A stretch of 64,000 nucleotides of DNA, taken from positions 3,162,001-3,226,000 of the forward strand of contig NZ_CP076024.1 of assembly GCF_022788635.1 (NCBI RefSeq). The letters run 5' to 3'. Source of the DNA: Methylobacter sp. S3L5C (GTDB lineage Bacteria > Pseudomonadota > Gammaproteobacteria > Methylococcales > Methylomonadaceae). Of the stretch, positions 44,301 through 56,222 are shown piece after piece (position 1 is the first letter of the stretch; each line of letters opens with the position of its first letter). Below the pieces are notes generated by a model. That model was not told the DNA's origin. It searched no databases and saw only the letters and a list, made by a program, of their open reading frames with translations. The position numbers and the translations under genes are program-made.

Positions 44301-46586
44301 TTAATGTGCTATCAGTTGATCAAAAGGCAGCAACGGGTCGGCTTTACCATTGGCACCTACGGCAGGAATCACCAGTACTTCATCCTTGGCCAGAACAGGG
44401 CTTAAAGGATTGCCGGCATTGACAGCGACAGCATTACCTTCATGGCCGTAAGGCACAATAATCTCTGGGTGATCAAACGGTGCTTTTTCATAACGCACAC
44501 GGTCATCGGTAAAGGTTTTTAAAAAAGCGATAACGTCTGCACGATTTTTTGCGCGTTGGGCTTCAGGAACATCTAAATCACCCGGAGTGCCTAGAGTGAG
44601 GCCATTGACGATGGCGTGTTTGTCGATGTTGTCAACATTCCCATGTCGTGAGTAAAACTCTATAACTTCTTCCAGAGTAGCCATACTGCCATTGTGCATA
44701 TAAGGCCCGGTCAATTCGACATTACGCAAGCTGGGTATTTTAAAGGCGGCCTTGCTTGCTATCGCCATTTTCTGCGTGTTTACGTTAGCTATAGCAGCTG
44801 CTACGGTTGGCATATACGTTGAATCAGGATCAAAGCAAAATTGGCTGCTACTGTTGGCGATCAAGCCATCTACATTAGTAAAACGCCAGTCATCGGCATC
44901 CGGTACATTGGTTGCAAAAGGCACTTCAGGGATAAAGTTACAGGTTCGTACCGAGGTGACACCCGGATCAAGGATCTTTTTGGCAGGATTGCCTTGTAGG
45001 TAATCCAGATATTGCGCGCTAAAAGATAGAGGCTGGCCAAAATCATCAACCCCACCAACACCAGGGTCAGAATCAGGATCGGCAACGCCGGTATTGGCAA
45101 AGCCAAAGTCCATTAACTTGGGGCCACCTTCCGTTTCATCACGAACAATGACATTGGTAAACCGGCTTATTCCTACTGCCTGAGCGCCAAATTGTGGACC
45201 TAATGCTTGAGGGCCATATGCTCTGGGAGAGGACGCCGGACCAAAGGTTTTTCCGGTGGTAGGGGTTACCAACAGGGCATTGGTAGCAACTGATGCAATG
45301 GTGATGGTTGGGCCGCCATGGCATAGATTACAATGGTTGCTGATAAACAAGTCATGCCCGTTTTTTAGCGAAACAATCTTTTCAGGACTATAACCCAAAC
45401 CCAGCCAAGTTGGCACATAGGTGGCAGGAACACGTTGTGTTAAATCAATAGGCGCTTGATCAGATATCAGGGTTGCTTGATACATTTGCAAAGCAATACC
45501 AAAAAATAGCGAGAAGTTGGCTTCCGTTTGGTTATACGGCATTTGCCCGGGGGCTGGTGCACCAAAAGGGCCAAGCGCATTATATGACCAATATTTTTTA
45601 TTAAACGCCTTGGTAATCATGGCTTTATAAGTAGTATTTAAGCCTGCTTTTAAGTCGTTTGCGGTACTTAAGGTTAAGTTTAAGGGGGCAAAAACGCTGT
45701 CTTCATCATGCACTTTCTGGTTTTGTAAGGGTTTGCGCAGGAGTAACTTTCTGCCTATTGCCGCCAGATTACGACCACGGCAACTCATTTCGCTGGCATT
45801 GAGTGGTGGTCCCATGGCCAGTGAAGCAAGCGATGAGTTTTCCAGATGTAAACGCTGTTTAACAACTGAGCGAGCGCCGCTGGTTACCCAAATACCAGCG
45901 CTGGGGTCGCGATCACCCCAAGTACTACTGCCGTTAAAAATGTTATTGGCGCGGCCATCCCAAAAGTTACGGTAATTAAATATGTCATTTATAACCGTCG
46001 GTGTGTTTCTGGGTTCTACGCGTCGAGTACCTGTGTTGCCAATATGAAAAACAGGATCGGCGCTCCGGTCGCAACTATCATTTGCGCCGTTAAACGGATT
46101 GGCTCCCTTAAAGGCGCCACTGAAAGTACCCGCCGAGGACACCACGTCATCGGTAATATAAGTTGGAACGCTGTTACTTTTATCCAGCGGATTGGGATAT
46201 CGGTAGAGCGGAAAATCGGAAAGTTTTACCGTATAGTTAGGGCCGCCGCCAGTACCTGAAGGCAGCATGTCAAATGTTTGTCCGCTGGCATTGCTGCTTT
46301 TCTCACCGGGATTAATCTGATTTTTATCTCTCGCATCAGCGCCTGCATGATAATGGCATGAGCCACAGGCCTGACCGTCACTGCCCACATTCATGTCCCA
46401 AAACAAAGCCTTGCCTAAAGCAATAGCCATGTTTTTATCAACCACGATAGGACTGGTACCATCCAAAAGGCCGGGAACAGGAGGCAACGGTACATTTTGC
46501 AAGGGGTAAGGTATCGGACCATGCGCATAAACAGCTTGCGTTATTAGCAACCCGAAGACCAGCATAATTTGAGGGAGAAATTTCAT
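44301..46586 (-). CDS. Large MauG/CcpA-type dihaem cytochrome c peroxidase
   Basis: The product is 761 aa, exported by the signal peptide IMLVFGLLITQAVYA. Two haem c sites: CGSCH (74-78) and CNLCH (419-423). The C-terminal part has LRNVELTGPYMHNGSMATLE and EVIEFYSRHGN, the distal-ligand region of the MauG/CcpA family. It is about twice the length of classic CcpA (320-350 aa). Methanotrophs have surface-associated cytochrome c peroxidases of this size (such as SACCP of Methylococcus). It lies 111 bp downstream of a VPxP-CTERM gene and may be in one transcript with it. Confidence 0.88.
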   Translation of the reverse strand: MKFLPQIMLVFGLLITQAVYAHGPIPYPLQNVPLPPVPGLLDGTSPIVVDKNMAIALGKALFWDMNVGSDGQACGSCHYHAGADARDKNQINPGEKSSNASGQTFDMLPSGTGGGPNYTVKLSDFPLYRYPNPLDKSNSVPTYITDDVVSSAGTFSGAFKGANPFNGANDSCDRSADPVFHIGNTGTRRVEPRNTPTVINDIFNYRNFWDGRANNIFNGSSTWGDRDPSAGIWVTSGARSVVKQRLHLENSSLASLAMGPPLNASEMSCRGRNLAAIGRKLLLRKPLQNQKVHDEDSVFAPLNLTLSTANDLKAGLNTTYKAMITKAFNKKYWSYNALGPFGAPAPGQMPYNQTEANFSLFFGIALQMYQATLISDQAPIDLTQRVPATYVPTWLGLGYSPEKIVSLKNGHDLFISNHCNLCHGGPTITIASVATNALLVTPTTGKTFGPASSPRAYGPQALGPQFGAQAVGISRFTNVIVRDETEGGPKLMDFGFANTGVADPDSDPGVGGVDDFGQPLSFSAQYLDYLQGNPAKKILDPGVTSVRTCNFIPEVPFATNVPDADDWRFTNVDGLIANSSSQFCFDPDSTYMPTVAAAIANVNTQKMAIASKAAFKIPSLRNVELTGPYMHNGSMATLEEVIEFYSRHGNVDNIDKHAIVNGLTLGTPGDLDVPEAQRAKNRADVIAFLKTFTDDRVRYEKAPFDHPEIIVPYGHEGNAVAVNAGNPLSPVLAKDEVLVIPAVGANGKADPLLPFDQLIAH

Positions 46587-46697: not shown

Positions 46698-47621
46698 TTA
46701 GGTCGTGCTTTTTTTACGACCACGTAAACCAATCAAGCCGGCCATGGCACTACCAAACAACCAAACCGCGCCGGGTACCGGTACGGCACTGATGCTTAAT
46801 TTATAACCGTCTTGAGTTGCACCCCATGAGCCATTTCTATAGCCGCCAAGGGCGATGGTATAAATTTGACCTGCTTCGGCATTAAAACTGATGGTATTCA
46901 GGTTGCTTGGCGTAGTGCCGCCAATGCTGTAGGCAACCATATCGGCAACAGAGAAAGACGTATTACCCTTTGGTAGGGAAGATGATGTAGGTGCGCTTAG
47001 TTGAGTGTTGTTGCCCAGGTTCCATGAACCATGATGGTTATAATCGACAGTGCTGGTGTCCATACCTTTAAAGATGGTGAATCCAAAATTGGTGCCACTT
47101 TGGTTAATGCCTTGGGCATTGACGGTAACCGTGCCACCGACATCCGATTTAAACAGGCCAAAGTCCACATCATGTCGCCAGCCTTGTGCACCGCTCAATC
47201 CCTGGTCGCTCCATGCGCCTTTGGCGGTATCGATGTCAGCGCCAACACCATAACGGGTCAGGGAATCCTGGCTGGAAATTTCTGCCGTACCGTTTGCAGT
47301 CATGTGTACTCCCCAATGCAGAACACCGCCACCGTTGTAGCCAAACGGTGTGGTGTTGGTGCCACCGGTGCCTGCCCAAGCCGCAACCGAGTTCGTTGAA
47401 CCTAATGGTGCGCCGTTAAATCCCCAGACCCAGCCATCGGTTCCTGCGCCACCATTGCAGGGCGCACAAGCTGTGGTATTGCTACTGAAATCATTGCCTT
47501 CATAAGTCGACAAATTGTACATGGTTGTCGACGATGCCGAGGCATTGCTGATAGCGCCTACAGACATTACGGTACCGGTGATTGCCATGGCAACGGCTTT
47601 AGCGATTTTGGTTGGTTTCAT
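46698..47621 (-). CDS. Secreted VPxP-CTERM protein, paralogue A (riboswitch-linked)
   Basis: The product is 307 aa. The signal peptide is VAMAITGTVMSVGAISNASA. The domain has a CAPC pair near residue 53, ISSQDSLTRYGVGADIDTA, and FTIFKGMDTSTVDYNHHGSW. The sorting signal is VPVPGAVWLFGSAMAGLIGL followed by RGRKK. The same word order (ISAADSLAKYG, VFDGMDTSTANYSHHGSW) is in the protein at 56411-57304, so the two are paralogues with about the same fold. No known family; the GMDTST and HHGSW words suggest a conserved functional site. A GEMM-like RNA precedes the gene. Confidence 0.8.
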   Translation of the reverse strand: MKPTKIAKAVAMAITGTVMSVGAISNASASSTTMYNLSTYEGNDFSSNTTACAPCNGGAGTDGWVWGFNGAPLGSTNSVAAWAGTGGTNTTPFGYNGGGVLHWGVHMTANGTAEISSQDSLTRYGVGADIDTAKGAWSDQGLSGAQGWRHDVDFGLFKSDVGGTVTVNAQGINQSGTNFGFTIFKGMDTSTVDYNHHGSWNLGNNTQLSAPTSSSLPKGNTSFSVADMVAYSIGGTTPSNLNTISFNAEAGQIYTIALGGYRNGSWGATQDGYKLSISAVPVPGAVWLFGSAMAGLIGLRGRKKSTT

Positions 47622-48431: not shown

Positions 48432-49340
48432 ATGACTCCCATGCTTTTAAAGCTCTACCGTTTTCCCTTTCGTGCGATGGGTTCGCCTTGTGAAATTCAA
48501 CTTTATGCTGGCGATAAGCAGTCCGCGCAGTGTGTCGCAGATAAAGCGATGGCGGATGTATGGCTTATAGAAGCGCGGTATTCAAGATATCGCGAGGATA
48601 GTGTGTTGTCTGCCATAAACCATGTCGCGTCCAAAGGCGGGGTAGTGCCGATAGATGAAGAAACGGCGGCATTACTTCATTATGCGGATACTTGTTATCA
48701 GCAAAGTAACGGTTTGTTTGATATTACTTCCGGTGTATTGCGAGGCGCTTGGGATTTTAAAGCACAAACTTTACCCAAAAAAGCTGTCATTAAACAACTG
48801 CTACGCGGCGTAGGCTGGAACAAAGTACAGTTAAGTTCGACGCATATTGCTTTTAAAAATGCCGGGATGCAACTGGATTTTGGTGGTATTGGCAAAGAAT
48901 ACGCTGTTGACAGGGCGGCAGTTATTTGCCGTGAGCAGGGCATTGAACATGGCTTGGTCGATTTGGGCGGCGATATTAAAATCATTGGCCCACATCCCGA
49001 CGGCAGGCCTTGGTCTGTCGGTCTAAGGCATCCGCGCAAGCTCGGTGCTTTGTTGGCAAACGTCAATGTTTATGAGGGCGCGGTAGCCAGTAGTGGCGAT
49101 TATGAGCGCTGTATGGTTGTTAATGGCCAGCGCTATGGGCATGTAATAAATCCTAAAACCGGCTGGCCGGTTAATGGCTTGATTGGCGTAACCGTATTAG
49201 CCAGGCAGTGTGTGATTGCCGGGAGTGCTTGTACGATTGCCATGCTCATGGAAAAATGCGGTAAACAATGGCTTAATGATTTGGGCGTACCGCATATCTG
49301 GATGGATAGCCAAGGAAAAGTTGGCGGGCAACTGAATTAG
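48432..49340 (+). CDS. apbE: FAD:protein FMN transferase (ApbE family)
   Basis: The product is 302 aa. Family landmarks: FRAMGSPCEIQLYAGD, MQLDFGGIGKEYAVDRAA, LVDLGGDIKIIGPHPDGRPW, and GDYERCMVVNGQRYGHVINP. ApbE attaches FMN from FAD through a phosphoester to Ser/Thr in D-x-x-(S/T)-G-A-(T/S) motifs. Odd points: there is no signal peptide or lipobox at the N-terminus (an in-frame TAA directly precedes the ATG), and the usual Asp of the ADAxxT metal site reads AGSACT. A DUF3570 protein nearby (51813-55391) carries the exact target motif. It probably belongs to that system. Confidence 0.88.
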   Translation: MTPMLLKLYRFPFRAMGSPCEIQLYAGDKQSAQCVADKAMADVWLIEARYSRYREDSVLSAINHVASKGGVVPIDEETAALLHYADTCYQQSNGLFDITSGVLRGAWDFKAQTLPKKAVIKQLLRGVGWNKVQLSSTHIAFKNAGMQLDFGGIGKEYAVDRAAVICREQGIEHGLVDLGGDIKIIGPHPDGRPWSVGLRHPRKLGALLANVNVYEGAVASSGDYERCMVVNGQRYGHVINPKTGWPVNGLIGVTVLARQCVIAGSACTIAMLMEKCGKQWLNDLGVPHIWMDSQGKVGGQLN

Positions 49341-49361: not shown

Positions 49362-49404
49362 AAGGTATATAACCTGCTTTTTTATTAAATCAGGTTATAT
49401 AACC
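49362..49404. terminator. Hairpin after apbE
   Basis: GGTATATAACCTG and CAGGTTATATAACC form a long stem around a T-rich loop directly after apbE. The IS5-type element has its left end at the base of this hairpin. Confidence 0.6.
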
Positions 49405-49406
49405 TA

Positions 49407-50227
49407 GGTTCTGTTGACGTTTCACCTCAGCCATAAAAGCACCGAGGAAAATGATAGCATCCCCATGTAATTAATAGCTTTTTTCTCATATCGTGTAGCA
49501 ATTCTGCGATAGTGCTTGAGCTTACCGAACATACATTCAATGGCATGCCGCTCCTTATAATGCCAATAATCGCACTCAATATCTTCTTTTCGGTTCGATT
49601 TAGGTGGGATAACCGCTTTTATTTCACGACTGGCTAACCACTCCCGCAACTCGTTCGTGTCGTAGGCTTTGTCTGCTAAAACGGCTGAAGCATTAACATT
49701 TTCCAATAAAGATATGGCTTGCTTGCATTCAGCCTCCTGCCCGCCTGTCAGGATAAATTTGATGGGCATGCCCAAGCCATCACAAAGCGCGTGAATCTTA
49801 CAACCAAATCCACCTTTGGAGCGCCCAAGTGCTTCATTCTCAGCAGAACTATATGCCGCTCCAGCTGCGCAGGCATGTGCTCTAATAACTGAACCATCCA
49901 TGGAAACATCTTGTAAATCAGCGTCTTCAGCAAGATGACAGAGAATTTCACCCCATATGCCATTGATACACCAACGTGAAAAACGCTTGAAGATGCTATT
50001 CCATTTACCATACGTTGACGGTAATACACGCCACTGTGCTCCCGTACGTAATATCCACAAAATGGCATTAACAAACTGCCTGCAAATATCGGGTAAACCG
50101 ATATGAACTCCAGGCAATTTTTTTAAGCTTGCCAAAATACGAGTCCACTCTTCATCACTTAATGTTATCCGCTTCATTTCATTCAAAACGACTTATTCTA
50201 CCGGATTGGTGAAACGTCAACAGAACC
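49407..50227 (-). mobile_element. IS5-family insertion sequence (IS427-like group)
   Basis: 821 bp with perfect 19-bp terminal inverted repeats (GGTTCTGTTGACGTTTCAC at 49407-49425; complement at 50209-50227) and a TA duplication (49405-49406 and 50228-50229). It carries one complete transposase gene, so it may be active. It inserted between apbE and a VPxP-CTERM gene, into the CTAG at the base of the apbE hairpin. Confidence 0.93.
49422..50186 (-). CDS. IS5-family transposase
   Basis: The product is 254 aa. N-terminal DUF4096-type domain (LPDICRQFVNAILWILRTGA, QWRVLPSTYGKW) and DDE domain: VSMDGSVIRAHACAAG, SKGGFGCKIHALCDGLGMPI, ASAVLADKAYDTNELREWLA, and ERHAIECMFGKLKHYRRIAT. All catalytic regions are present in one frame. 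The stop lies near the IS end. Confidence 0.93.
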   Translation of the reverse strand: MNEMKRITLSDEEWTRILASLKKLPGVHIGLPDICRQFVNAILWILRTGAQWRVLPSTYGKWNSIFKRFSRWCINGIWGEILCHLAEDADLQDVSMDGSVIRAHACAAGAAYSSAENEALGRSKGGFGCKIHALCDGLGMPIKFILTGGQEAECKQAISLLENVNASAVLADKAYDTNELREWLASREIKAVIPPKSNRKEDIECDYWHYKERHAIECMFGKLKHYRRIATRYEKKAINYMGMLSFSSVLLWLR

Positions 50228-50539
50228 TAGTTTAATTAAGTTATTGCCTGGTTTTATCAAGTCAATGCCGATTTTTTATTGCCTGTTGATGCAAAATCTA
50301 ATTATTATGGAATAAAAATAAAGGCTTGTAGCTATTGTAAATGTTTTTTTTATTTATATACACAAGGTGGCTTATATTTTGCTTAATTTGATTGAAGGGG
50401 GCTGTAAGACAGTTTCCCACTCATGTTCCAGAAGTTAAGCCATTAGTGGCTTTATTTTGGAATTTTTGATCGATGTGCCGGGCTTATTCTTTCTGTAATG
50501 TAAGAGTATCCGGCGATAAGAAAAATGTAAGGAATTTAT
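50228..50539. other. Intergenic region upstream of the third VPxP-CTERM gene
   Basis: 312 bp. Apart from AT-rich promoter-like sequence and a weak AAGGAAT ribosome site at 50529-50535, nothing is recognised. The TGTTATTTGACA motif is not found here. Confidence 0.5.
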
Positions 50540-51391
50540 ATGAATAAAAAAATAATTGGCGGCATGTTGTTTGCCGCTGTTGCTGTCAGCGGTACGGCCA
50601 ATGCGGCTATTACTACCGAGACTATCCTTAACTTTAATAAAGGTGAAGCGGCTACTCCACAAGTTGCAAGTACAGCGGGCAACCTGGGCATGACCCAGTC
50701 CGCCTATGCAGGTTTTGCTAATGTTGCTCCTCAATCCGGTGGTCTTACTGCTGGCACAAATGCCGCTGGCGCTTATTACGAAGATGGCTTGGTGGTGGGT
50801 ATTGTCCAGGATACTTCCAACAACATCGCCCATGTTCACCGTGGTGGAACGGTTAATGACAGAAACGTGATGTATCATTCCGACTCTAGTGGACTTTATA
50901 TCAGGGCTTTGGACAGTAGCGCCTTTAGCCTGACATCACTTAATTTTGATGCGGTGGCTAGTGATGAAAATCCGTATGCTACTGGCACTTACATAAGCCA
51001 AAGTTCAGGTGAGTCAGTAACCAGCGTGGCCGGTGCCAATGATTATTGGGAAATTTTGGGTTATGCCTCGGCATTAAATCCAACCCTGGATACTGATGCC
51101 AATAGTGGTGCCTGGATTGCCCGTCAAACATTGACTAACGGTTTTAACGGTCTGGTGACACTCAGTAGCGCTTTTGAAAATATTGGCGCTTTCTGGATTC
51201 ATTATGCCGGCTATCAGCAAACACCTGTAGACGGTATGCAGTTTGCCATGTCGTTGGATAATGTCATTGTTAACGCTGCTGTTGTTCCTCCTGTTGCTGC
51301 GGTACCTGTACCTGCTGCGCTGTGGATGTTTCTTAGCGGCATAATGGGTTTGTTGGCTTTCGGTAAAAAGAAAGACCGTTTGGTTGCTTAA
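50540..51391 (+). CDS. Secreted VPxP-CTERM protein with the domain also inserted in the DUF3570 protein
   Basis: The product is 283 aa. A signal peptide (MLFAAVAVSGTANA) precedes a beta-rich domain (about residues 25-250) and a sorting signal VPVPAALWMFLSGIMGLLAF with GKKKD. Words such as SAYAGFANVAPQ, GLVVGIVQDTSNNIAHVHR, YHSDSSGLYIRALDS and NDYWEILGYASALNP recur, nearly unchanged, inside the giant DUF3570 protein next door (residues about 230-415 there). The domain family is unknown to me. It may form an extracellular partner of the barrel. Confidence 0.8.
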   Translation: MNKKIIGGMLFAAVAVSGTANAAITTETILNFNKGEAATPQVASTAGNLGMTQSAYAGFANVAPQSGGLTAGTNAAGAYYEDGLVVGIVQDTSNNIAHVHRGGTVNDRNVMYHSDSSGLYIRALDSSAFSLTSLNFDAVASDENPYATGTYISQSSGESVTSVAGANDYWEILGYASALNPTLDTDANSGAWIARQTLTNGFNGLVTLSSAFENIGAFWIHYAGYQQTPVDGMQFAMSLDNVIVNAAVVPPVAAVPVPAALWMFLSGIMGLLAFGKKKDRLVA

Positions 51392-51812: not shown

Positions 51813-54800
51813 CTAAAACGCATAATTCCAGCTTACTGCCAAGGCACCATTGCGATTAAGCTGATAACCGTTGTAATCGGTACTGACCGGTTGTAGCCAT
51901 TCAAAACTGACATTATGGCCCACGAATTTGCCACCGGTAACCGAGGCATTAAGACCCACACCGACATCCAGAAATCGGCCACCGTAATTACTGGCAGAGT
52001 CCACGGTTGAGGTAACTTGATGCGCCTGATTGGTTGCTCCCTTTATATCACCCTGTGCAGTATAGACACCGCGCACCGAAGCCGATAACCAATTAAACGC
52101 CTGATAGCTGCCCCAAGGGGTTGCCTGAAAAATATCCCCATAAGCATAGTCATATTTATTTTTTTCCAGACGCTTAACACCGCTCACTTGTACGCCCCAA
52201 CTAAAGTCATTGACTTGTCCTGTATAGGTCAGGCTGGGCTTAAAATCCCAGGTGCCGCTACCGGTTTGCATGCCGTAATCCTGTAAGTTGCTGCTATCCA
52301 GTCGTGCGCCGATACTACCGGTTGGTGTACTCATACCTAATCCTAAGTGAACATGATGACCGTTTTTGTCCAAGACTTTAACCAACGCGGTAACTACAGT
52401 GTCACCGATATCGTTACTAAAATGCTTGGCTCCACCATGGCCGCCAAAGTCATTTTCCTCGGTCTGATTGATATAGGGACGGATAGGATTGCTCATGGTC
52501 ATATCCATACTCATCAATTGCGGCATCAGCATGATATTTAACCAGTCCGTCGGTGCGTACATTAAATCCAGCATATGCATTTGCATGTTCATGGAAGTGG
52601 GTTTATACAAGCAACCCTGGTTATAGTCTGTACAAGCATTACTAACCAACGCCTGATCGTTGACCGAATCGCTGCCATGCAGCATGGCGCCACCCTGATT
52701 ACTGTATTGATAACGATAACCGACCATAATCTCGTCAGCTTGGCTCATCATGTGTCCATACATAACCCCGGCTGGTACCGGCACGCCGTGATGATGCATG
52801 GTGTGGCTACTGTGATCGCCACCGGTCAGTGCCTTGGCCGATAAATCCACGCTTAAATTGGCGTGGGCCAGGTAATAATCAAAATTGGCATAATTACCAA
52901 CTCCGCCGCCACCGAGTTTTAAAGAGCCTGAATGGGTAACATATTCAGCGCCAATCTCCAGACTGATGCCGCGAGCAAACTGTTTTTTTAGGGTGGCACC
53001 GCCACTTAAGTCACCAAAGGCAGATAAACGAAAGTCGCTGGAGTAGTTGCCGTCAGCACGGGGTGCCAAAAAGTACGGCGCAAAAAAGTCGGCTTGCGAC
53101 TGCGAATAATAGCGAATACTGGGGATAATGGTAAAGCCGCCGGGCAGGGTTTGAAACCATTTTGCTTCAAAGGTATGAGAATTAATACCCCAGTCGTCGG
53201 TATAAAAGCGATAGTCAAAATGTGCGGAGGCATCAAGCTCGGGTATATAGTGATTAATACGGTTGGATAAAGAGCCGATATTGCGTTGTCTGGGGCGATT
53301 TTCGCGGAATAATTCCAAACCAACGACCTCCAGATTGGTTACTGCATTCCAGTCGACGCCAGCATCGGTAGGATTCCAGAGATTATAGTATTCTGTCGGG
53401 GTGATTTCACCACGCACATAAACGGATTTATAGGGATTGCTCAAATAACCGCTTTGATTGGTATAGCTGGCGGTGGACTGAAACAAGGTGTTTTTGGAAA
53501 GTACCTGGGCGATACTGGTAGTAAAGCTGTTAAAAGTACTTGCCTCATTTAATGCTTGGTAACTAGTCGGATAATGTGCCGGGTCACTGCCATGATGGGA
53601 GCTATGGCCACTGCCGTTGCGGGCAATGGTATTGCTGGTCATGCCGTAACCGGCGGATACTGTAGTGAGTTTGTCATTAAATTCATGACTGATGTTGGTG
53701 GAGCCAAAATTGGATAAATAATCCGGTTCGTCAGAAAGACCGCCGGATATTGCCAGTGTAGTTGCATCAAGATAATATTTGACGTTGACTTGAGGCATTG
53801 AGCGGGTTTCTTGGGGTTGCACCTGAAAAACCTGTACGGCTTGGGTGCCGGTGGGCACCTGACTATTGAGAATATCACTGTATAAAGAAATGGCGGCTTG
53901 CTTGGCCAGTTCATTGAGCGATGCAGCATTCTGAGCCGATTGATCGGTATAGCTTTGGTTTATTGCTGCTGTTTGAGTAGTATAGTTGCCCGTTAGTACT
54001 GACATTTGCATCGTGTAGTTATTGGTTAACAATGCTAATTGTACAGGATCGGTTAATGCCGCCAATTGTGTATTGTAAGTGGCGGTTAAGGTTGTTATTT
54101 CAGCATTATAAGCATTTACTTGATTGGATAATGCCAAGACAGGGGAAACATTGATATTATCCAATGCCATGCTGAATTCTTTGCCATCCGTTGGTGTTTG
54201 CGGATAACCCTTAAAATGTATCCAGGCTGCATTAATATTGTTGAAGCTACTATTAAGCTGCAAGGTACCGTCAAAGCCATTGGCAACCGTCTGATAAGCA
54301 ACACGAGTGGCATAGTTGGTACCGTCACCGGTATCCAGATTTGGATTGAGTGCGGTATTAAAGCCTAAAATTTCCCAATAGTCATTGGGGCCGTTATCAG
54401 GGTTTGCCCCAGAGATAGGTGCTTTAAAATTCATAGAATCAAGACTAAAGGCCTTGCTGTCTTGGGAGCGAATATAAATACCGCTGGAATCGGAATGATA
54501 TTGCAGGGATCTATCAGCCACAGTACCAGCACGATGTAAATGGGCTATCGGGTTTGACGTATCCTCAACAATGCCAACCACCATGCCATTTTGGTTATAG
54601 CAGCCACTGCTACCTGAACCGGGACAACCGCCACCGGCGATAGGTGAGGTATTGGCAAAGCCGGCATAGGACGATAATGACATTCCGGTATTAAAGTCAA
54701 TCGTTACATTGTTGGCGATATTGCCGGGAACTGCCGCCAGATTGGTCTCGATAACGGCTTTATCGGTTTCGTATTGGTCGGTCAACGCAGGGATTGCAAC

Positions 54801-55391
54801 ATTGAGGTTATTTAAATCTGATTTGTAAGTGTCTGTAATAAGAGCTTTATCCGCATTATAAGAGGTGTCTAGCGCTGCTTGATCGTTGGTTTTTGTGGTT
54901 TCAAGCGCGGTTAGCTGAGTGTTACTATTGGTGGTAATTTCTGCCTGGGCTGCGGTATTGCCATCAGAAAATGACTGAAAACCGTTAAGACCCCCAAGTA
55001 TGGTTAATCCTGCTGCCGTGACACCACCTGATGCGGCTGATATGACATCAACATAACTAAGTTCATTTGAGACTGTGCCATCCGCTTTTTGTTTGTATTT
55101 GGCCACATTGGTCATGCTTGCCGGCATGCTAAACGATGGCGTGGCACCACTGTAAGTATCGCGATCAAGACTAAAAGCCAATTCAAGCCGGTCGGTCAAC
55201 GGAATAATCGCATCGGCATGGTAAATATCAACCTGCATACGGTTATCACTTTCCTGGTAATGGCCGTAACTGACATTGGATAGTATTTGTGCCGAAGGGA
55301 TGGCGGCCGAGACAGTCAATCCGGGCAGACTGAGTGCCGCTGTCGTGAATGCCGCCAGTGCAGTTTTTTTGTCTGATTTAATTGCAGCCAC
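51813..55391 (-). CDS. Giant DUF3570 outer-membrane protein with inserted VPxP-type domain
   Basis: About 1192 aa from GTG 55389-55391, chosen because AGGAGG stands five bases before it. Layout: signal-like segment (1-30), DUF3570 N-terminus with DTYSGAT (78-84, the ApbE target motif), coiled-coil linker (about 145-225), inserted domain (about 230-415) like the protein at 50540-51391, second helical linker (420-500), DUF3570 barrel (about 530-850), then a Met/His-rich segment (MHHHGVPVPAGVMYGHMM) and a second barrel-like part, ending in an aromatic Phe. DUF3570 proteins are usually about 400 aa. It overlaps the DUF4266 gene by 14 bases. Function unknown; probably an outer-membrane flavin or metal protein. 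Confidence 0.8.
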   Translation of the reverse strand: MAAIKSDKKTALAAFTTAALSLPGLTVSAAIPSAQILSNVSYGHYQESDNRMQVDIYHADAIIPLTDRLELAFSLDRDTYSGATPSFSMPASMTNVAKYKQKADGTVSNELSYVDVISAASGGVTAAGLTILGGLNGFQSFSDGNTAAQAEITTNSNTQLTALETTKTNDQAALDTSYNADKALITDTYKSDLNNLNVAIPALTDQYETDKAVIETNLAAVPGNIANNVTIDFNTGMSLSSYAGFANTSPIAGGGCPGSGSSGCYNQNGMVVGIVEDTSNPIAHLHRAGTVADRSLQYHSDSSGIYIRSQDSKAFSLDSMNFKAPISGANPDNGPNDYWEILGFNTALNPNLDTGDGTNYATRVAYQTVANGFDGTLQLNSSFNNINAAWIHFKGYPQTPTDGKEFSMALDNINVSPVLALSNQVNAYNAEITTLTATYNTQLAALTDPVQLALLTNNYTMQMSVLTGNYTTQTAAINQSYTDQSAQNAASLNELAKQAAISLYSDILNSQVPTGTQAVQVFQVQPQETRSMPQVNVKYYLDATTLAISGGLSDEPDYLSNFGSTNISHEFNDKLTTVSAGYGMTSNTIARNGSGHSSHHGSDPAHYPTSYQALNEASTFNSFTTSIAQVLSKNTLFQSTASYTNQSGYLSNPYKSVYVRGEITPTEYYNLWNPTDAGVDWNAVTNLEVVGLELFRENRPRQRNIGSLSNRINHYIPELDASAHFDYRFYTDDWGINSHTFEAKWFQTLPGGFTIIPSIRYYSQSQADFFAPYFLAPRADGNYSSDFRLSAFGDLSGGATLKKQFARGISLEIGAEYVTHSGSLKLGGGGVGNYANFDYYLAHANLSVDLSAKALTGGDHSSHTMHHHGVPVPAGVMYGHMMSQADEIMVGYRYQYSNQGGAMLHGSDSVNDQALVSNACTDYNQGCLYKPTSMNMQMHMLDLMYAPTDWLNIMLMPQLMSMDMTMSNPIRPYINQTEENDFGGHGGAKHFSNDIGDTVVTALVKVLDKNGHHVHLGLGMSTPTGSIGARLDSSNLQDYGMQTGSGTWDFKPSLTYTGQVNDFSWGVQVSGVKRLEKNKYDYAYGDIFQATPWGSYQAFNWLSASVRGVYTAQGDIKGATNQAHQVTSTVDSASNYGGRFLDVGVGLNASVTGGKFVGHNVSFEWLQPVSTDYNGYQLNRNGALAVSWNYAF

Positions 55392-55713
55392 AACCGCCTC
55401 CTGCACCGCTATGTCCACCTTGTGAGGCTTCTTTGCTGGTAAAAATATGATCACGAAAGCTGTTTAAATTGGGGTGGGGATTGATACCCATTTCCGGTTT
55501 GGCCAGATTACCCCGTTGCCAGGGCGCAACCGTGCTACAACCTTGGCAAACAAGCACGCTGCTACAGAGTAGGGCGATGACCAGTCGGTGAGTCCATTGA
55601 TTTCTCGTGTAGTTCGATAAGTTACCGAATGTAACGAACACATTGAGTGTCGGTCGCATAGTCTTATCCAAGGTAAGACGTTGCTCACCAAGCCATTGTG
55701 TTAAAGCGTGCAT
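55378..55713 (-). CDS. DUF4266 lipoprotein
   Basis: The product is 111 aa from ATG 55711-55713 (AAGGAT before it). A hydrophobic helix ends in the lipobox VLVCQGCS, then STVAPWQRGNLAKPEMGINP as in DUF4266, and a Gly/Cys C-terminus GGHSGAGGGCGCN. About 35 residues precede the helix, longer than usual for a lipoprotein signal. DUF4266 and DUF3570 genes are regular neighbours, with thioredoxin and ApbE. The conserved C-terminal GGCGCN could bind metal or be modified (speculative). Confidence 0.82.
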   Translation of the reverse strand: MHALTQWLGEQRLTLDKTMRPTLNVFVTFGNLSNYTRNQWTHRLVIALLCSSVLVCQGCSTVAPWQRGNLAKPEMGINPHPNLNSFRDHIFTSKEASQGGHSGAGGGCGCN

Positions 55714-55730: not shown

Positions 55731-56222
55731 TTATTCAGCCAGTAGCGCCGAAACTTGTGCACTAATCATGTCTTTGTCCTCATCCCGAAAGCCGAGATGT
55801 ATTTTTCTGATTTTGCCGGTTTTATCGACCAGATAAGTCGACGGCATGGCTTGAACATCAAACTTGGCAGGGCAGTCGCCTTTTGGATCAAAAGCCGTGA
55901 CGTAATCAACGGCATTGCTAACAAGAAACTGTTTGGCTTCTTCGCTATTTTCATCGACATTGATGGCAATAATCTCAAAGCCGTTTTTGACGTGTTCGTT
56001 ACGCAAACTGTTAAAAAACGGCATTGATTTTTTACAGGGTGGACACCAGGTCGCCCAAAAATCAATCAAAATCACTTTGCCTTTATAGGCATTAAGGTCA
56101 AGTTTTTCAGCATTGCCAGTAAGTGCGGCGGGACATTGAGGGGTAGGTTGACCTTCTTGTGCTGCGTTTGCCAGAGGGGCAGTAGCCAAAAATATCAGGG
56201 TTGATAAAAGCAATTTTTTCAT
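55731..56222 (-). CDS. TlpA/ResA-like thioredoxin
   Basis: The product is 163 aa from ATG 56220-56222 (MKKLLLSTLIFLATAPLANA, signal peptide). Thioredoxin fold with VILIDFWATWCPPCKKSMPF (WCPPC) and the cis-Pro region VQAMPSTYLVDKTGKIRKIH. A periplasmic dithiol protein, often used for cytochrome or cysteine-protein maturation. It is the first gene of thioredoxin-DUF4266-DUF3570, 17 bp before the lipoprotein, whose cysteines may be its substrate. Confidence 0.9.
   Translation of the reverse strand: MKKLLLSTLIFLATAPLANAAQEGQPTPQCPAALTGNAEKLDLNAYKGKVILIDFWATWCPPCKKSMPFFNSLRNEHVKNGFEIIAINVDENSEEAKQFLVSNAVDYVTAFDPKGDCPAKFDVQAMPSTYLVDKTGKIRKIHLGFRDEDKDMISAQVSALLAE

What the first reader, a model, noticed from the sequence alone, without database searches (positions are those of the whole stretch)
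51813..55391. DUF3570 protein carries an exact ApbE flavinylation motif, with ApbE nearby
Seen: DTYSGAT at codons 55140-55160 fits D-x-x-(S/T)-G-A-(T/S), the motif that ApbE enzymes modify with FMN in NqrC/RnfG-type proteins. An apbE gene lies 2.5 kb away, and a thioredoxin and a DUF4266 lipoprotein are in the same operon. Inference: DUF3570 barrels are covalent flavoproteins of the outer membrane and the cluster is a flavin-based surface redox system. Tension: this ApbE has no signal peptide and its usual metal-site Asp reads Ser (AGSACT), so where the modification happens is unclear.
Basis: partly seen in the sequence, partly recalled or inferred. Interest (0 to 1): 0.85.

Follow-up and report, generated by a model that had tools for sequence, protein, structure and literature searches.

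The report
Predicted flavin barrel with unusual ApbE
A methane-oxidiser's outer-membrane barrel very likely carries a covalently bound flavin on its cell-surface side (that this barrel family is flavin-modified was already published), and the enzyme that attaches it appears, unexpectedly, to work inside the cell before the barrel is exported.

Summary
In detail: a DUF3570 protein with DTYSGAT at 55160-55140, beside DUF4266, a TlpA-like thioredoxin and ApbE. The main inference is already in print: Meheust 2021 (PMC8238504) showed DUF3570 flavinylation by its cognate ApbE and described this gene cluster. Two corrections: the expected attachment residue is the last Thr, not the Ser; the replaced ApbE metal-site Asp aligns with Gly (Ser is next to it).

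Of 117 DUF3570-linked ApbE ORFs, 115 have Gly for that Asp, 115 have GKE for GKG, 110 an AMxxxC cysteine, and 5 a strongly hydrophobic N-terminus (56 of 61 comparison ApbEs do). They group in one clade (support 0.987). AlphaFold2 makes a DUF3570 relative a 16-strand barrel with the motif in an inferred extracellular loop. Best reading: a cytosolic ApbE puts FMN on the barrel precursor before export.

The window copy is a variant seen in 7 loci: a predicted coiled-coil stalk plus head inserted in the flavin loop, a fused second barrel, and a di-haem peroxidase nearby. The four clade members found in genomes without a DUF3570 match all co-occur with EF-hand proteins bearing PQ[AV]x[ST]GAS, a candidate new ApbE substrate.

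The parts
51813..55391 (-). DUF3570 protein, variant with an inserted stalk/head and a fused second barrel; GTG start with GGAGG Shine-Dalgarno at the 3' end of the DUF4266 gene
   Evidence: PF12094 E 9.4e-78; sequence
55140..55160 (-). Flavinylation motif DTYSGAT; predicted FMN on the last Thr (codon 55142-55140)
   Evidence: aligned motif conservation; chemistry of the motif from PMC8238504
55095..55355 (-). N-terminal DUF3570 part (Pfam positions 2-95, barrel strands 1-3 and motif)
   Evidence: G000:C1:3217095-3217355
53865..54938 (-). Insertion in the motif loop: long helix, about 187-aa head, long helix (predicted coiled-coil stalk with head)
   Evidence: AF2 helices at mature residues 123-190 (mostly pLDDT 75-88) and 387-480 (about 65); head homologous to the neighbouring PEP-CTERM-like gene (58% identity)
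52872..53996 (-). Rest of the DUF3570 barrel (Pfam positions 76-426, strands 4-16)
51816..52844 (-). C-terminal Met/His-rich second barrel domain, fused in many DUF3570 proteins of this bacterial family
   Evidence: no Pfam hit itself; standalone homologue L075:2108-3127 hits PF13557, E 1.8e-8
55378..55713 (-). DUF4266 lipoprotein with Gly-rich tail ending CGCN; its last codons carry the ribosome site and start of DUF3570
   Evidence: PF14086 E 2.9e-21; GGCGC[NY] ends and gene overlap across relatives; lipoprotein from sequence by eye and lipobox-like motif in 91 of 143 relatives
55731..56222 (-). TlpA/ResA-like thioredoxin (WCPPC), presumably periplasmic, probable start at 56222
   Evidence: start chosen by eye from the signal sequence
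48432..49340 (+). ApbE of the signal-less clade: Cys20 (AMGSPC), Glu156 (GGIGKE), Gly264 (AGSACT); an in-frame stop directly precedes the ATG
   Evidence: PF02424 E 2.1e-75
50540..51391 (+). PEP-CTERM-like exported protein, paralogue of the inserted head domain
   Evidence: PEP-CTERM signal is below cut-off
44301..46586 (-). Di-haem cytochrome c peroxidase (MauG-like), present near all 7 insert-form loci
   Evidence: PF03150 E 6.8e-15, two CxxCH
46698..47621 (-). PEP-CTERM-like protein just upstream of the peroxidase; weak, sub-threshold CorA copper-protein match
   Evidence: PF18252 E 0.0083, 16.2 bits against cut-off 27

Best explanation
The window holds a variant of the published DUF3570 flavinylation system. 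DUF3570 is a 16-strand outer-membrane barrel. The ApbE next to it attaches FMN through a phosphoester to the Thr of DTYSGAT, in the loop after strand 3, which faces outside. Because this ApbE has no export signal and the site ends up outside the cell, the modification most likely happens in the cytosol on the unfolded precursor, and the flavin-bearing chain then passes Sec and is folded by BAM. In the periplasm, electrons would run from a DsbD-type donor to the TlpA-like thioredoxin, to the CxC tail of the outer-membrane lipoprotein DUF4266 (made in step with the barrel), to the flavin, and on to an outside acceptor, probably a metal ion. In this subtype a coiled-coil stalk with a head domain grows out of the flavin loop and works with surface PEP-CTERM-like proteins and a MauG-like di-haem peroxidase. 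Shown here: anatomy, conservation, clade structure, co-occurrence and a confident barrel model of a relative. Shown by others: ApbE flavinylation of a DUF3570. Inferred: cytosolic timing, the electron path, the acceptor and the role of the stalk.
For: Known chemistry: C. luteolum DUF3570 is flavinylated by its cognate ApbE, lost only when both sites are mutated. It was co-expressed after a cloning strategy described as similar to the signal-truncated DUF2271 pair, and was mostly recovered from the lysed cell pellet and purified denatured, so a barrel chain that had not been assembled in a membrane is a substrate. Location of ApbE: hydrophobic N-terminus (10-residue mean >=2.0 anywhere in the 60 residues upstream, whatever the start) in 5 of 117 linked ApbE ORFs against 56 of 61 comparison ApbEs; at >=1.7, 13 of 117 against 57 of 61. 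The comparison loci hold no DUF3570 or DUF4266 within about 1.5 kb. Operon partners of the same loci do show one at >=1.7 in the first 70 residues: thioredoxin 121/127, DUF4266 135/143, DUF3570 140/152, ApbE 17/117. In the window an in-frame stop directly precedes the apbE ATG. Clade: 116 linked plus 1 comparison ApbE against 60 others, support 0.987; with more genes added, 116 linked plus 17 further rows, support 0.942. Co-occurrence: at least two ApbE matches in 43 of 45 DUF3570-positive genomes of the family and 2 of 16 negative ones, Fisher 6e-10. Topology: model pLDDT 94.5, pTM 0.88, 16 long strands; turns after even strands 2-5 aa, loops after odd strands up to 39 aa; motif at the end of strand 3. 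The outer side is the more conserved: 66 of 261 residues at least 90% identical against 18 of 136. Foldseek matches outer-membrane barrels. Coupling: 143 of 143 DUF4266 ORFs end CxC; the first in-frame start after a ribosome-site-like motif lies inside the DUF4266 gene in 134 of 143 pairs, with a loose motif that Gly codons favour. Insert: its head is 58% identical to the neighbouring PEP-CTERM-like protein, and all 7 insert-form loci carry a standalone gene of this kind.
Against: No protein was tested. Signal-peptide absence rests on a hydrophobicity proxy, not SignalP. The 61 comparison ApbEs are the window genome's second copy and the 60 loci returned for the best matches of two searches, so they lean to canonical enzymes. 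The linked sample is Pseudomonadota plus two Nitrospirota records, with redundancy (at least one species sampled twice, fragments of two genes), and the C. luteolum enzyme was not examined here; if that ApbE has a signal peptide the rule is not universal. Sec passage of an FMN-bearing chain is not shown. ApbE sits near DUF3570 in 45 of 61 and 71 of 80 neighbourhoods, not all, although contig ends explain some. The window genome also has a second ApbE with a lipoprotein-like N-terminus, which could act in the periplasm instead. The window protein has only one [ST]GA[ST] motif while the tested relative has two. The AF2 model of the window protein itself is poor (pLDDT 50; N-terminal strands, head and second barrel unresolved), and topology was inferred from loop lengths in a relative, not measured.
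Confidence: 0.55

Rival explanations
1. Ordinary periplasmic flavinylation: the genome's other, lipoprotein-type ApbE modifies unfolded DUF3570 in the periplasm, and the signal-less ApbE serves another, cytosolic substrate.
For: The window genome encodes a second ApbE (G000:C1:4347076-4347921) with a lipoprotein-like N-terminus and the canonical Asp. Most characterised ApbEs are secreted (review PMC12052999, passages and section 6). Seven clade-type ApbEs stand away from DUF3570 in genomes that have one elsewhere, and four are in genomes with no DUF3570 match, so the clade has at least one other partner.
Against: 14 of 16 DUF3570-negative genomes of the same family have one ApbE match, while 43 of 45 positive ones have at least two. 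The signal-less clade sits near DUF3570 in most neighbourhoods. I saw no other shared candidate substrate in the DUF3570 operons, but did not search for one systematically.
Confidence: 0.2
2. The signal-less ApbE is exported by an unrecognised route, or rides with its substrate, and still works in the periplasm.
For: Its substrate is exported; 17 of 117 linked ApbEs have a moderately hydrophobic stretch near the N-terminus, and the two conserved cysteines of the clade could suit an oxidising compartment (inference).
Against: The same measure finds signals in nearly all operon partners. The four clade members in genomes with no DUF3570 match co-occur with an EF-hand protein that also shows no signal by eye.
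Confidence: 0.12
3. The window copy is a degenerate or repurposed barrel: the motif persists but the insertion, the separated ApbE and the loss of the second motif mean it no longer carries a working flavin.
For: An IS5-type element sits between apbE and the PEP-CTERM-like gene in the window. None of the 7 insert forms has a second motif, and 9 of 32 second-barrel fusions lack the strict motif.
Against: All 7 insert forms keep D[TI]YSGAT, and the same-genus relative L064 keeps apbE in the same place, with a 470-bp gap to the next gene instead of 1.2 kb, which suggests continued selection on the site.
Confidence: 0.1

Closest known systems
DUF3570/ApbE/thioredoxin/DUF4266 clusters (DsbD-type flavinylation system; Meheust et al. 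2021, PMC8238504)
   Same: Same four gene families and same motif class; DUF3570 shown to be flavinylated by its ApbE
   Different: Window copy has a stalk/head insertion in the motif loop, a fused second barrel, one motif instead of two, no DsbD gene seen beside it, and a di-haem peroxidase nearby. In the passages seen the paper says nothing of signal-less ApbE for DUF3570 or of a metal-site change, and 'cytosolic ApbE' and 'barrel' do not occur in its main text (figures and supplements not seen)
Canonical ApbE (periplasmic lipoprotein FAD:protein FMN transferase)
   Same: PF02424 family; conserved glycine-rich GK.YA.D segment and the Thr of the metal-site motif
   Different: No export signal by proxy; metal-site Asp replaced by Gly, GKG replaced by GKE, extra conserved Cys
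Cytosolic ApbE of Klebsiella pneumoniae and kinetoplastids (fumarate reductase)
   Same: ApbE without signal peptide (review PMC12052999)
   Different: There the substrate stays inside the cell; here it is an outer-membrane barrel
CorA/CorB and MopE/SACCP copper pair of methanotrophs (PMC3912023)
   Same: Surface-type protein gene followed by a di-haem cytochrome c peroxidase gene
   Different: CorA match is far below the Pfam cut-off (16.2 against 27 bits); copper role not tested
MtrCAB-type porin-cytochrome conduits
   Same: Barrel plus redox partners to carry electrons across the outer membrane (comparison recalled, not tested)
   Different: Flavin and thiols in place of haems

Membership tests
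DUF3570 flavinylation substrates (PF12094, ApbE-linked) | Match to PF12094 over cut-off | tested here: met
   262.3 bits, cut-off 25; split by an insertion
DUF3570 flavinylation substrates (PF12094, ApbE-linked) | [ST]GA[ST] motif at the conserved place | tested here: met
   DTYSGAT at aa 78-84; conserved in 7 of 7 insert forms
DUF3570 flavinylation substrates (PF12094, ApbE-linked) | Two [ST]GA[ST] motifs (as in the C. luteolum protein) | tested here: not met
   One motif only; a similar site reads SAAS. In this sample only 36 of 152 have two or more, so I do not take it as a required feature
DUF3570 flavinylation substrates (PF12094, ApbE-linked) | Covalent FMN on the protein | not testable with these tools
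   Needs protein; shown for the C. luteolum relative
Outer-membrane beta-barrel | Even number of strands, short periplasmic turns, long outer loops, C-terminal Phe | tested here: met
   Marinomonas relative: 16 strands, pLDDT 94.5; window protein ends ...SWNYAF; Foldseek hits to FadL, OmpG, AlgE, BcsC. The window's own model does not resolve all strands
ApbE family (PF02424) | Match to PF02424 over cut-off | tested here: met
   254.1 bits, cut-off 25.6
Canonical periplasmic lipoprotein ApbE | N-terminal export signal | tested here: not met
   Window ATG follows an in-frame stop and lies 14 codons before AMGSPC; 112 of 117 linked ApbE ORFs below the hydrophobicity threshold
Canonical periplasmic lipoprotein ApbE | Metal-site Asp four residues before the conserved Thr | tested here: not met
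   Gly264 in the window; Gly in 115 of 117 linked, Asp in 59 of 61 comparison ApbEs
CorA-type copper protein (PF18252) for window 46698-47621 | Match over cut-off | tested here: not met
   16.2 bits against 27
Di-haem cytochrome c peroxidase / MauG-like for window 44301-46586 | PF03150 match and two CxxCH motifs | tested here: met
   E 6.8e-15; CxxCH at aa 74 and 419

The most novel reading that the evidence does not exclude
A distinct clade of ApbE enzymes works in the cytosol and attaches FMN to proteins that act outside the cell, so a covalent flavin is carried through Sec on an unfolded outer-membrane barrel chain and ends up on the cell surface. The clade has a moved metal ligand (Asp to Gly with Gly to Glu in the GKG loop) and a second, unreported substrate: signal-less EF-hand proteins tagged PQ[AV]x[ST]GAS. 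In methanotrophs the barrel has become a stalked surface redox device with its own di-haem peroxidase.
Probability: 0.45. Interest if true: 0.78.

Novelty: new variant of a known kind. Interest (0 to 1): 0.6.

Why it matters
Flavinylation outside the cell is generally taken to use a secreted ApbE and hence FAD outside the cytosol. A cytosolic route for an outer-membrane protein would remove that need for one widespread system, and would be the first case known to me of a covalent flavin pre-loaded before Sec export (from general knowledge; the only cytosolic ApbEs named in the review section read, act on fumarate reductases). A flavin on the outer face of a barrel, fed by thiols, would be a haem-free way to move electrons across the outer membrane. 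The clade signature makes these ApbEs easy to recognise and predicts new substrates, one of which (the EF-hand family) came out of this work.

Tried and rejected
Rejected: that the missing signal peptide and changed metal site are decay or a mis-called start in this genome. They are shared by the clade, and the test looked up to 60 residues upstream in the open frame regardless of start codon; in the window a stop directly precedes the ATG. Rejected: Tat export of a pre-folded flavoprotein as the general route; a twin-Arg-like motif occurs in 8 of 152 DUF3570 N-termini. Rejected: filing the cluster as CorA/CorB; the CorA match is below cut-off. Led nowhere: sequence search of the barrel against solved structures (0 hits); Pfam on the window's second barrel (none); AF2 of the whole window protein (pLDDT 50), where the N-terminal strands had no usable alignment because only C-terminal pieces of relatives were aligned past the insertion. 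An earlier whole-length alignment placed the N-termini of relatives inside the insertion (A4) and was dropped. The window row at the end of alignment A3 is misplaced for the same reason; it went into the AF2 job (1 of 67 rows) and was left out. The first residues of the C-terminal pieces in A5 are misplaced too. The role of the second barrel and of copper was not settled. An earlier count said 70 of 80 loci have ApbE; the counts printed give 71 of 80, used here.
Full report
What was claimed and what is there. The window protein at 51813-55391 (minus strand) is DUF3570 with DTYSGAT at nt 55160-55140, aa 78-84. Beside it are DUF4266 (55378-55713), a TlpA/ResA-like thioredoxin and, on the other strand, ApbE (48432-49340). 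The genome has a particulate methane/ammonia monooxygenase subunit A (PF02461, E 9.3e-129), so I treat it as a methane oxidiser; its name was not looked up. The ApbE rule puts FMN on the last residue of the motif, here Thr84, not the Ser (rule from PMC8238504, passages). Alignment with solved ApbEs shows that the Asp of ADxxxT corresponds to Gly264, with Ser265 next to it.

Already known. A search for DUF3570 in the held library finds one paper, and the same paper is the only one for DUF4266. Meheust et al. 2021 (PMC8238504; abstract and passages read) express C. luteolum DUF3570 with its ApbE, see covalent flavin, and lose it only when both [S/T]GA[S/T] sites are mutated. [quoted passage not shown] Huang et al. 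2024 (PMC11334425; section 5 read) model other substrates; DUF3570 is not named in its main text.

Motif conservation and chance. Over 152 DUF3570 ORFs from the window, 60 genome neighbourhoods and 80 named loci, 129 have D..[ST]GA[ST] in the first 320 residues: 99 of 113 short forms, 23 of 32 forms with a second barrel, 7 of 7 insert forms. Shuffled N-termini give 38 of 7600. Two or more [ST]GA[ST] motifs occur in 36 of 152. The 60 neighbourhoods were picked from more matches than that (all insert forms, then a spread of others); the 80 are the best of 578.

Neighbourhoods. The order thioredoxin, DUF4266, DUF3570, ApbE recurs. In the 61 neighbourhoods (window included) DUF4266 is found in 59, thioredoxin in 56, ApbE in 45 (gene maps). 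In the 80 named loci ApbE is found in 71 and DUF4266 in 79, with contig ends cutting some. All 143 DUF4266 ORFs end in CxC (GGCGC[NY]), and in 134 of 143 pairs the first in-frame DUF3570 start after a ribosome-site-like motif lies inside the DUF4266 gene (commonest at -10 in 42, -16 in 32, -14 in 24). The motif used is loose and Gly codons favour it, so this suggests, rather than shows, translational coupling and a complex. Genes of DsbD length stand next to many short-form clusters (one checked and is DsbD) but I saw none beside the window cluster; the genome has three DsbD_TM matches elsewhere.

The ApbE clade. I compared 117 ApbE ORFs near DUF3570 (116 loci) with 61 others: the window genome's second ApbE and the 60 loci returned by two ApbE searches. 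The 60 are high-scoring matches, so they lean to canonical enzymes; none has DUF3570 or DUF4266 within about 1.5 kb. Linked: Gly for the metal-site Asp 115/117, Cys in AMxxxC 110/117, Glu in GKE 115/117, hydrophobic N-terminus 5/117. Comparison: Asp 59/61, Cys 1/61, Gly in GKG 60/61, hydrophobic N-terminus 56/61. FastTree on 177 sequences (one linked fragment dropped for length) puts 116 linked and one comparison ApbE together, support 0.987. The same hydrophobicity measure finds signals in the operon partners, which serves as a positive control. In E. coli ApbE, D283 is a ligand of metal site 1 and E169 binds a second metal ion (PMC4767422 passages). That D283 is the column discussed here, and that the clade's Glu takes over its role, is my inference.

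Presence and absence. In 61 genomes of the family, 43 of 45 with DUF3570 have at least two ApbE matches and 14 of 16 without have one (Fisher 6e-10). The two exceptions among positives are G056 and G059; among negatives G025 (two partial matches in a 76% complete genome) and G030, whose second ApbE is outside the clade (L266). Close relatives are not independent, so the p value overstates the strength.

Structure. AF2 of the Marinomonas relative (L124, alignment A3, 67 rows) gives pLDDT 94.5 and pTM 0.88 with 16 long strands. Turns after even strands are 2-5 residues; loops after odd strands reach 39. With both termini in the periplasm this puts the motif at the end of strand 3, on the outer side. 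Strongly conserved residues are commoner on that side (66/261 against 18/136, Fisher p 0.006; strands alone 29/103 against 17/109, p 0.03). As I recall, outer loops of barrels are usually variable, so this suggests a functional site there. Foldseek finds outer-membrane barrels but no close match (FadL, OmpG, AlgE, BcsC; best query TM about 0.5).

The window subtype. In this bacterial family many DUF3570 open frames are 840-1070 aa, and one genome has 15 DUF3570 matches; in the fetched ones the extra length is a Met/His-rich C-terminal domain. A standalone homologue of that domain hits PF13557, an outer-membrane barrel family as I recall. Seven loci (window and L064-L069) have a further insertion between motif and strand 4. 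AF2 of the window protein is poor overall (pLDDT 50) but predicts long helices at mature residues 123-190 and 387-480 around a head: a coiled-coil stalk. The head is 58% identical to the PEP-CTERM-like protein encoded at 50540-51391. All 7 loci have such a standalone paralogue (only 28% identical in L068), and in L065, L066 and L067 the inserted and standalone copies of one genome are closer to each other than the inserted copy is to those of other genomes (89, 83 and 76%), as if copied back and forth. All 7 also carry a di-haem cytochrome c peroxidase, against 1 of the 54 other neighbourhoods (Fisher 2e-8, relatedness not corrected) and 1 match in the 80 named loci. The peroxidase follows a PEP-CTERM-like gene in the window, as corB goes with corA in methanotrophs (PMC3912023 passages), but the CorA match is below cut-off. 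Copper is a lead, not a result.

A second substrate. Four clade members lie in genomes (G129, G189, G200, G291) that are not among the DUF3570 matches. All four encode EF-hand-type proteins with PQ[AV]x[ST]GAS near the N-terminus and, by eye, no signal. The two genes are adjacent in three; in G189 they are on different contigs. EF-hand Pfam matches were checked for G129 and G200; the others match the G200 protein. Searching 398 genomes of the phylum gave 5 with a match; the fifth, G464, shows no [ST]GA[ST] motif in its locus and its single ApbE is outside the clade. In the family of G129 the protein is in 2 of 61 genomes, G129 and G200. With these four the clade has 120 members, support 0.988. 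Adding the ApbEs of 20 further stretches, 13 of 20 join the clade (support 0.942) and 7 do not. Of the 13, three have DUF3570 in the same stretch, seven stand away from it in genomes that have DUF3570 elsewhere (L268, L269, L271, L272, L275, L276, L277), and three are the G129, G189 and G200 genes again. A paper search for EF-hand with ApbE listed three papers, none on this by title.

Mechanism. Cytosolic flavinylation before export best joins three facts: the enzyme has no signal, the site lies outside the outer membrane where FAD is not expected, and an unassembled barrel chain is a known substrate. It remains an inference. The electron path thioredoxin, DUF4266 CxC tail, flavin, outside acceptor extends the published DsbD model; nothing here measures it.

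Verdict. Headline known; variant and enzyme clade not found in the papers I could search (PMC open-licence papers only, mostly seen as listings).

Noticed in passing
L264:9351-10780, L279:4140-5442, L291 with L305, L290/L293/L295 with L307: EF-hand-type proteins without a visible signal, tagged PQ[AV]x[ST]GAS, occur in the four genomes whose clade-type ApbE has no DUF3570 in the genome (adjacent in three); a candidate new ApbE substrate family.
   Followed up: partly
window 54147-54707 and 50540-51391; L065, L066, L067: Inserted head domain and standalone PEP-CTERM-like paralogue are more alike within a genome than the inserted heads are between genomes in three loci, which suggests repeated copying between the two genes.
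   Followed up: partly
window 44301-46586 and L064-L069: A di-haem cytochrome c peroxidase accompanies all 7 insert-form DUF3570 loci and only 1 of 54 other neighbourhoods.
   Followed up: partly
window 49395-50239: An IS5-type transposase gene within 32-nt inverted ends lies between apbE and the PEP-CTERM-like gene; the same-genus relative L064 has a much shorter gap there.
   Followed up: partly
G018 (L084, L085, L086) and G044 (L087): Many DUF3570 copies per genome (15 matches in G018), several as DUF4266-DUF3570 pairs in a row, some without the strict motif.
   Followed up: no
L221, L228, L231, L232: Other ApbEs below the hydrophobicity threshold but with the normal Asp, possibly a separate cytosolic group.
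   Followed up: no
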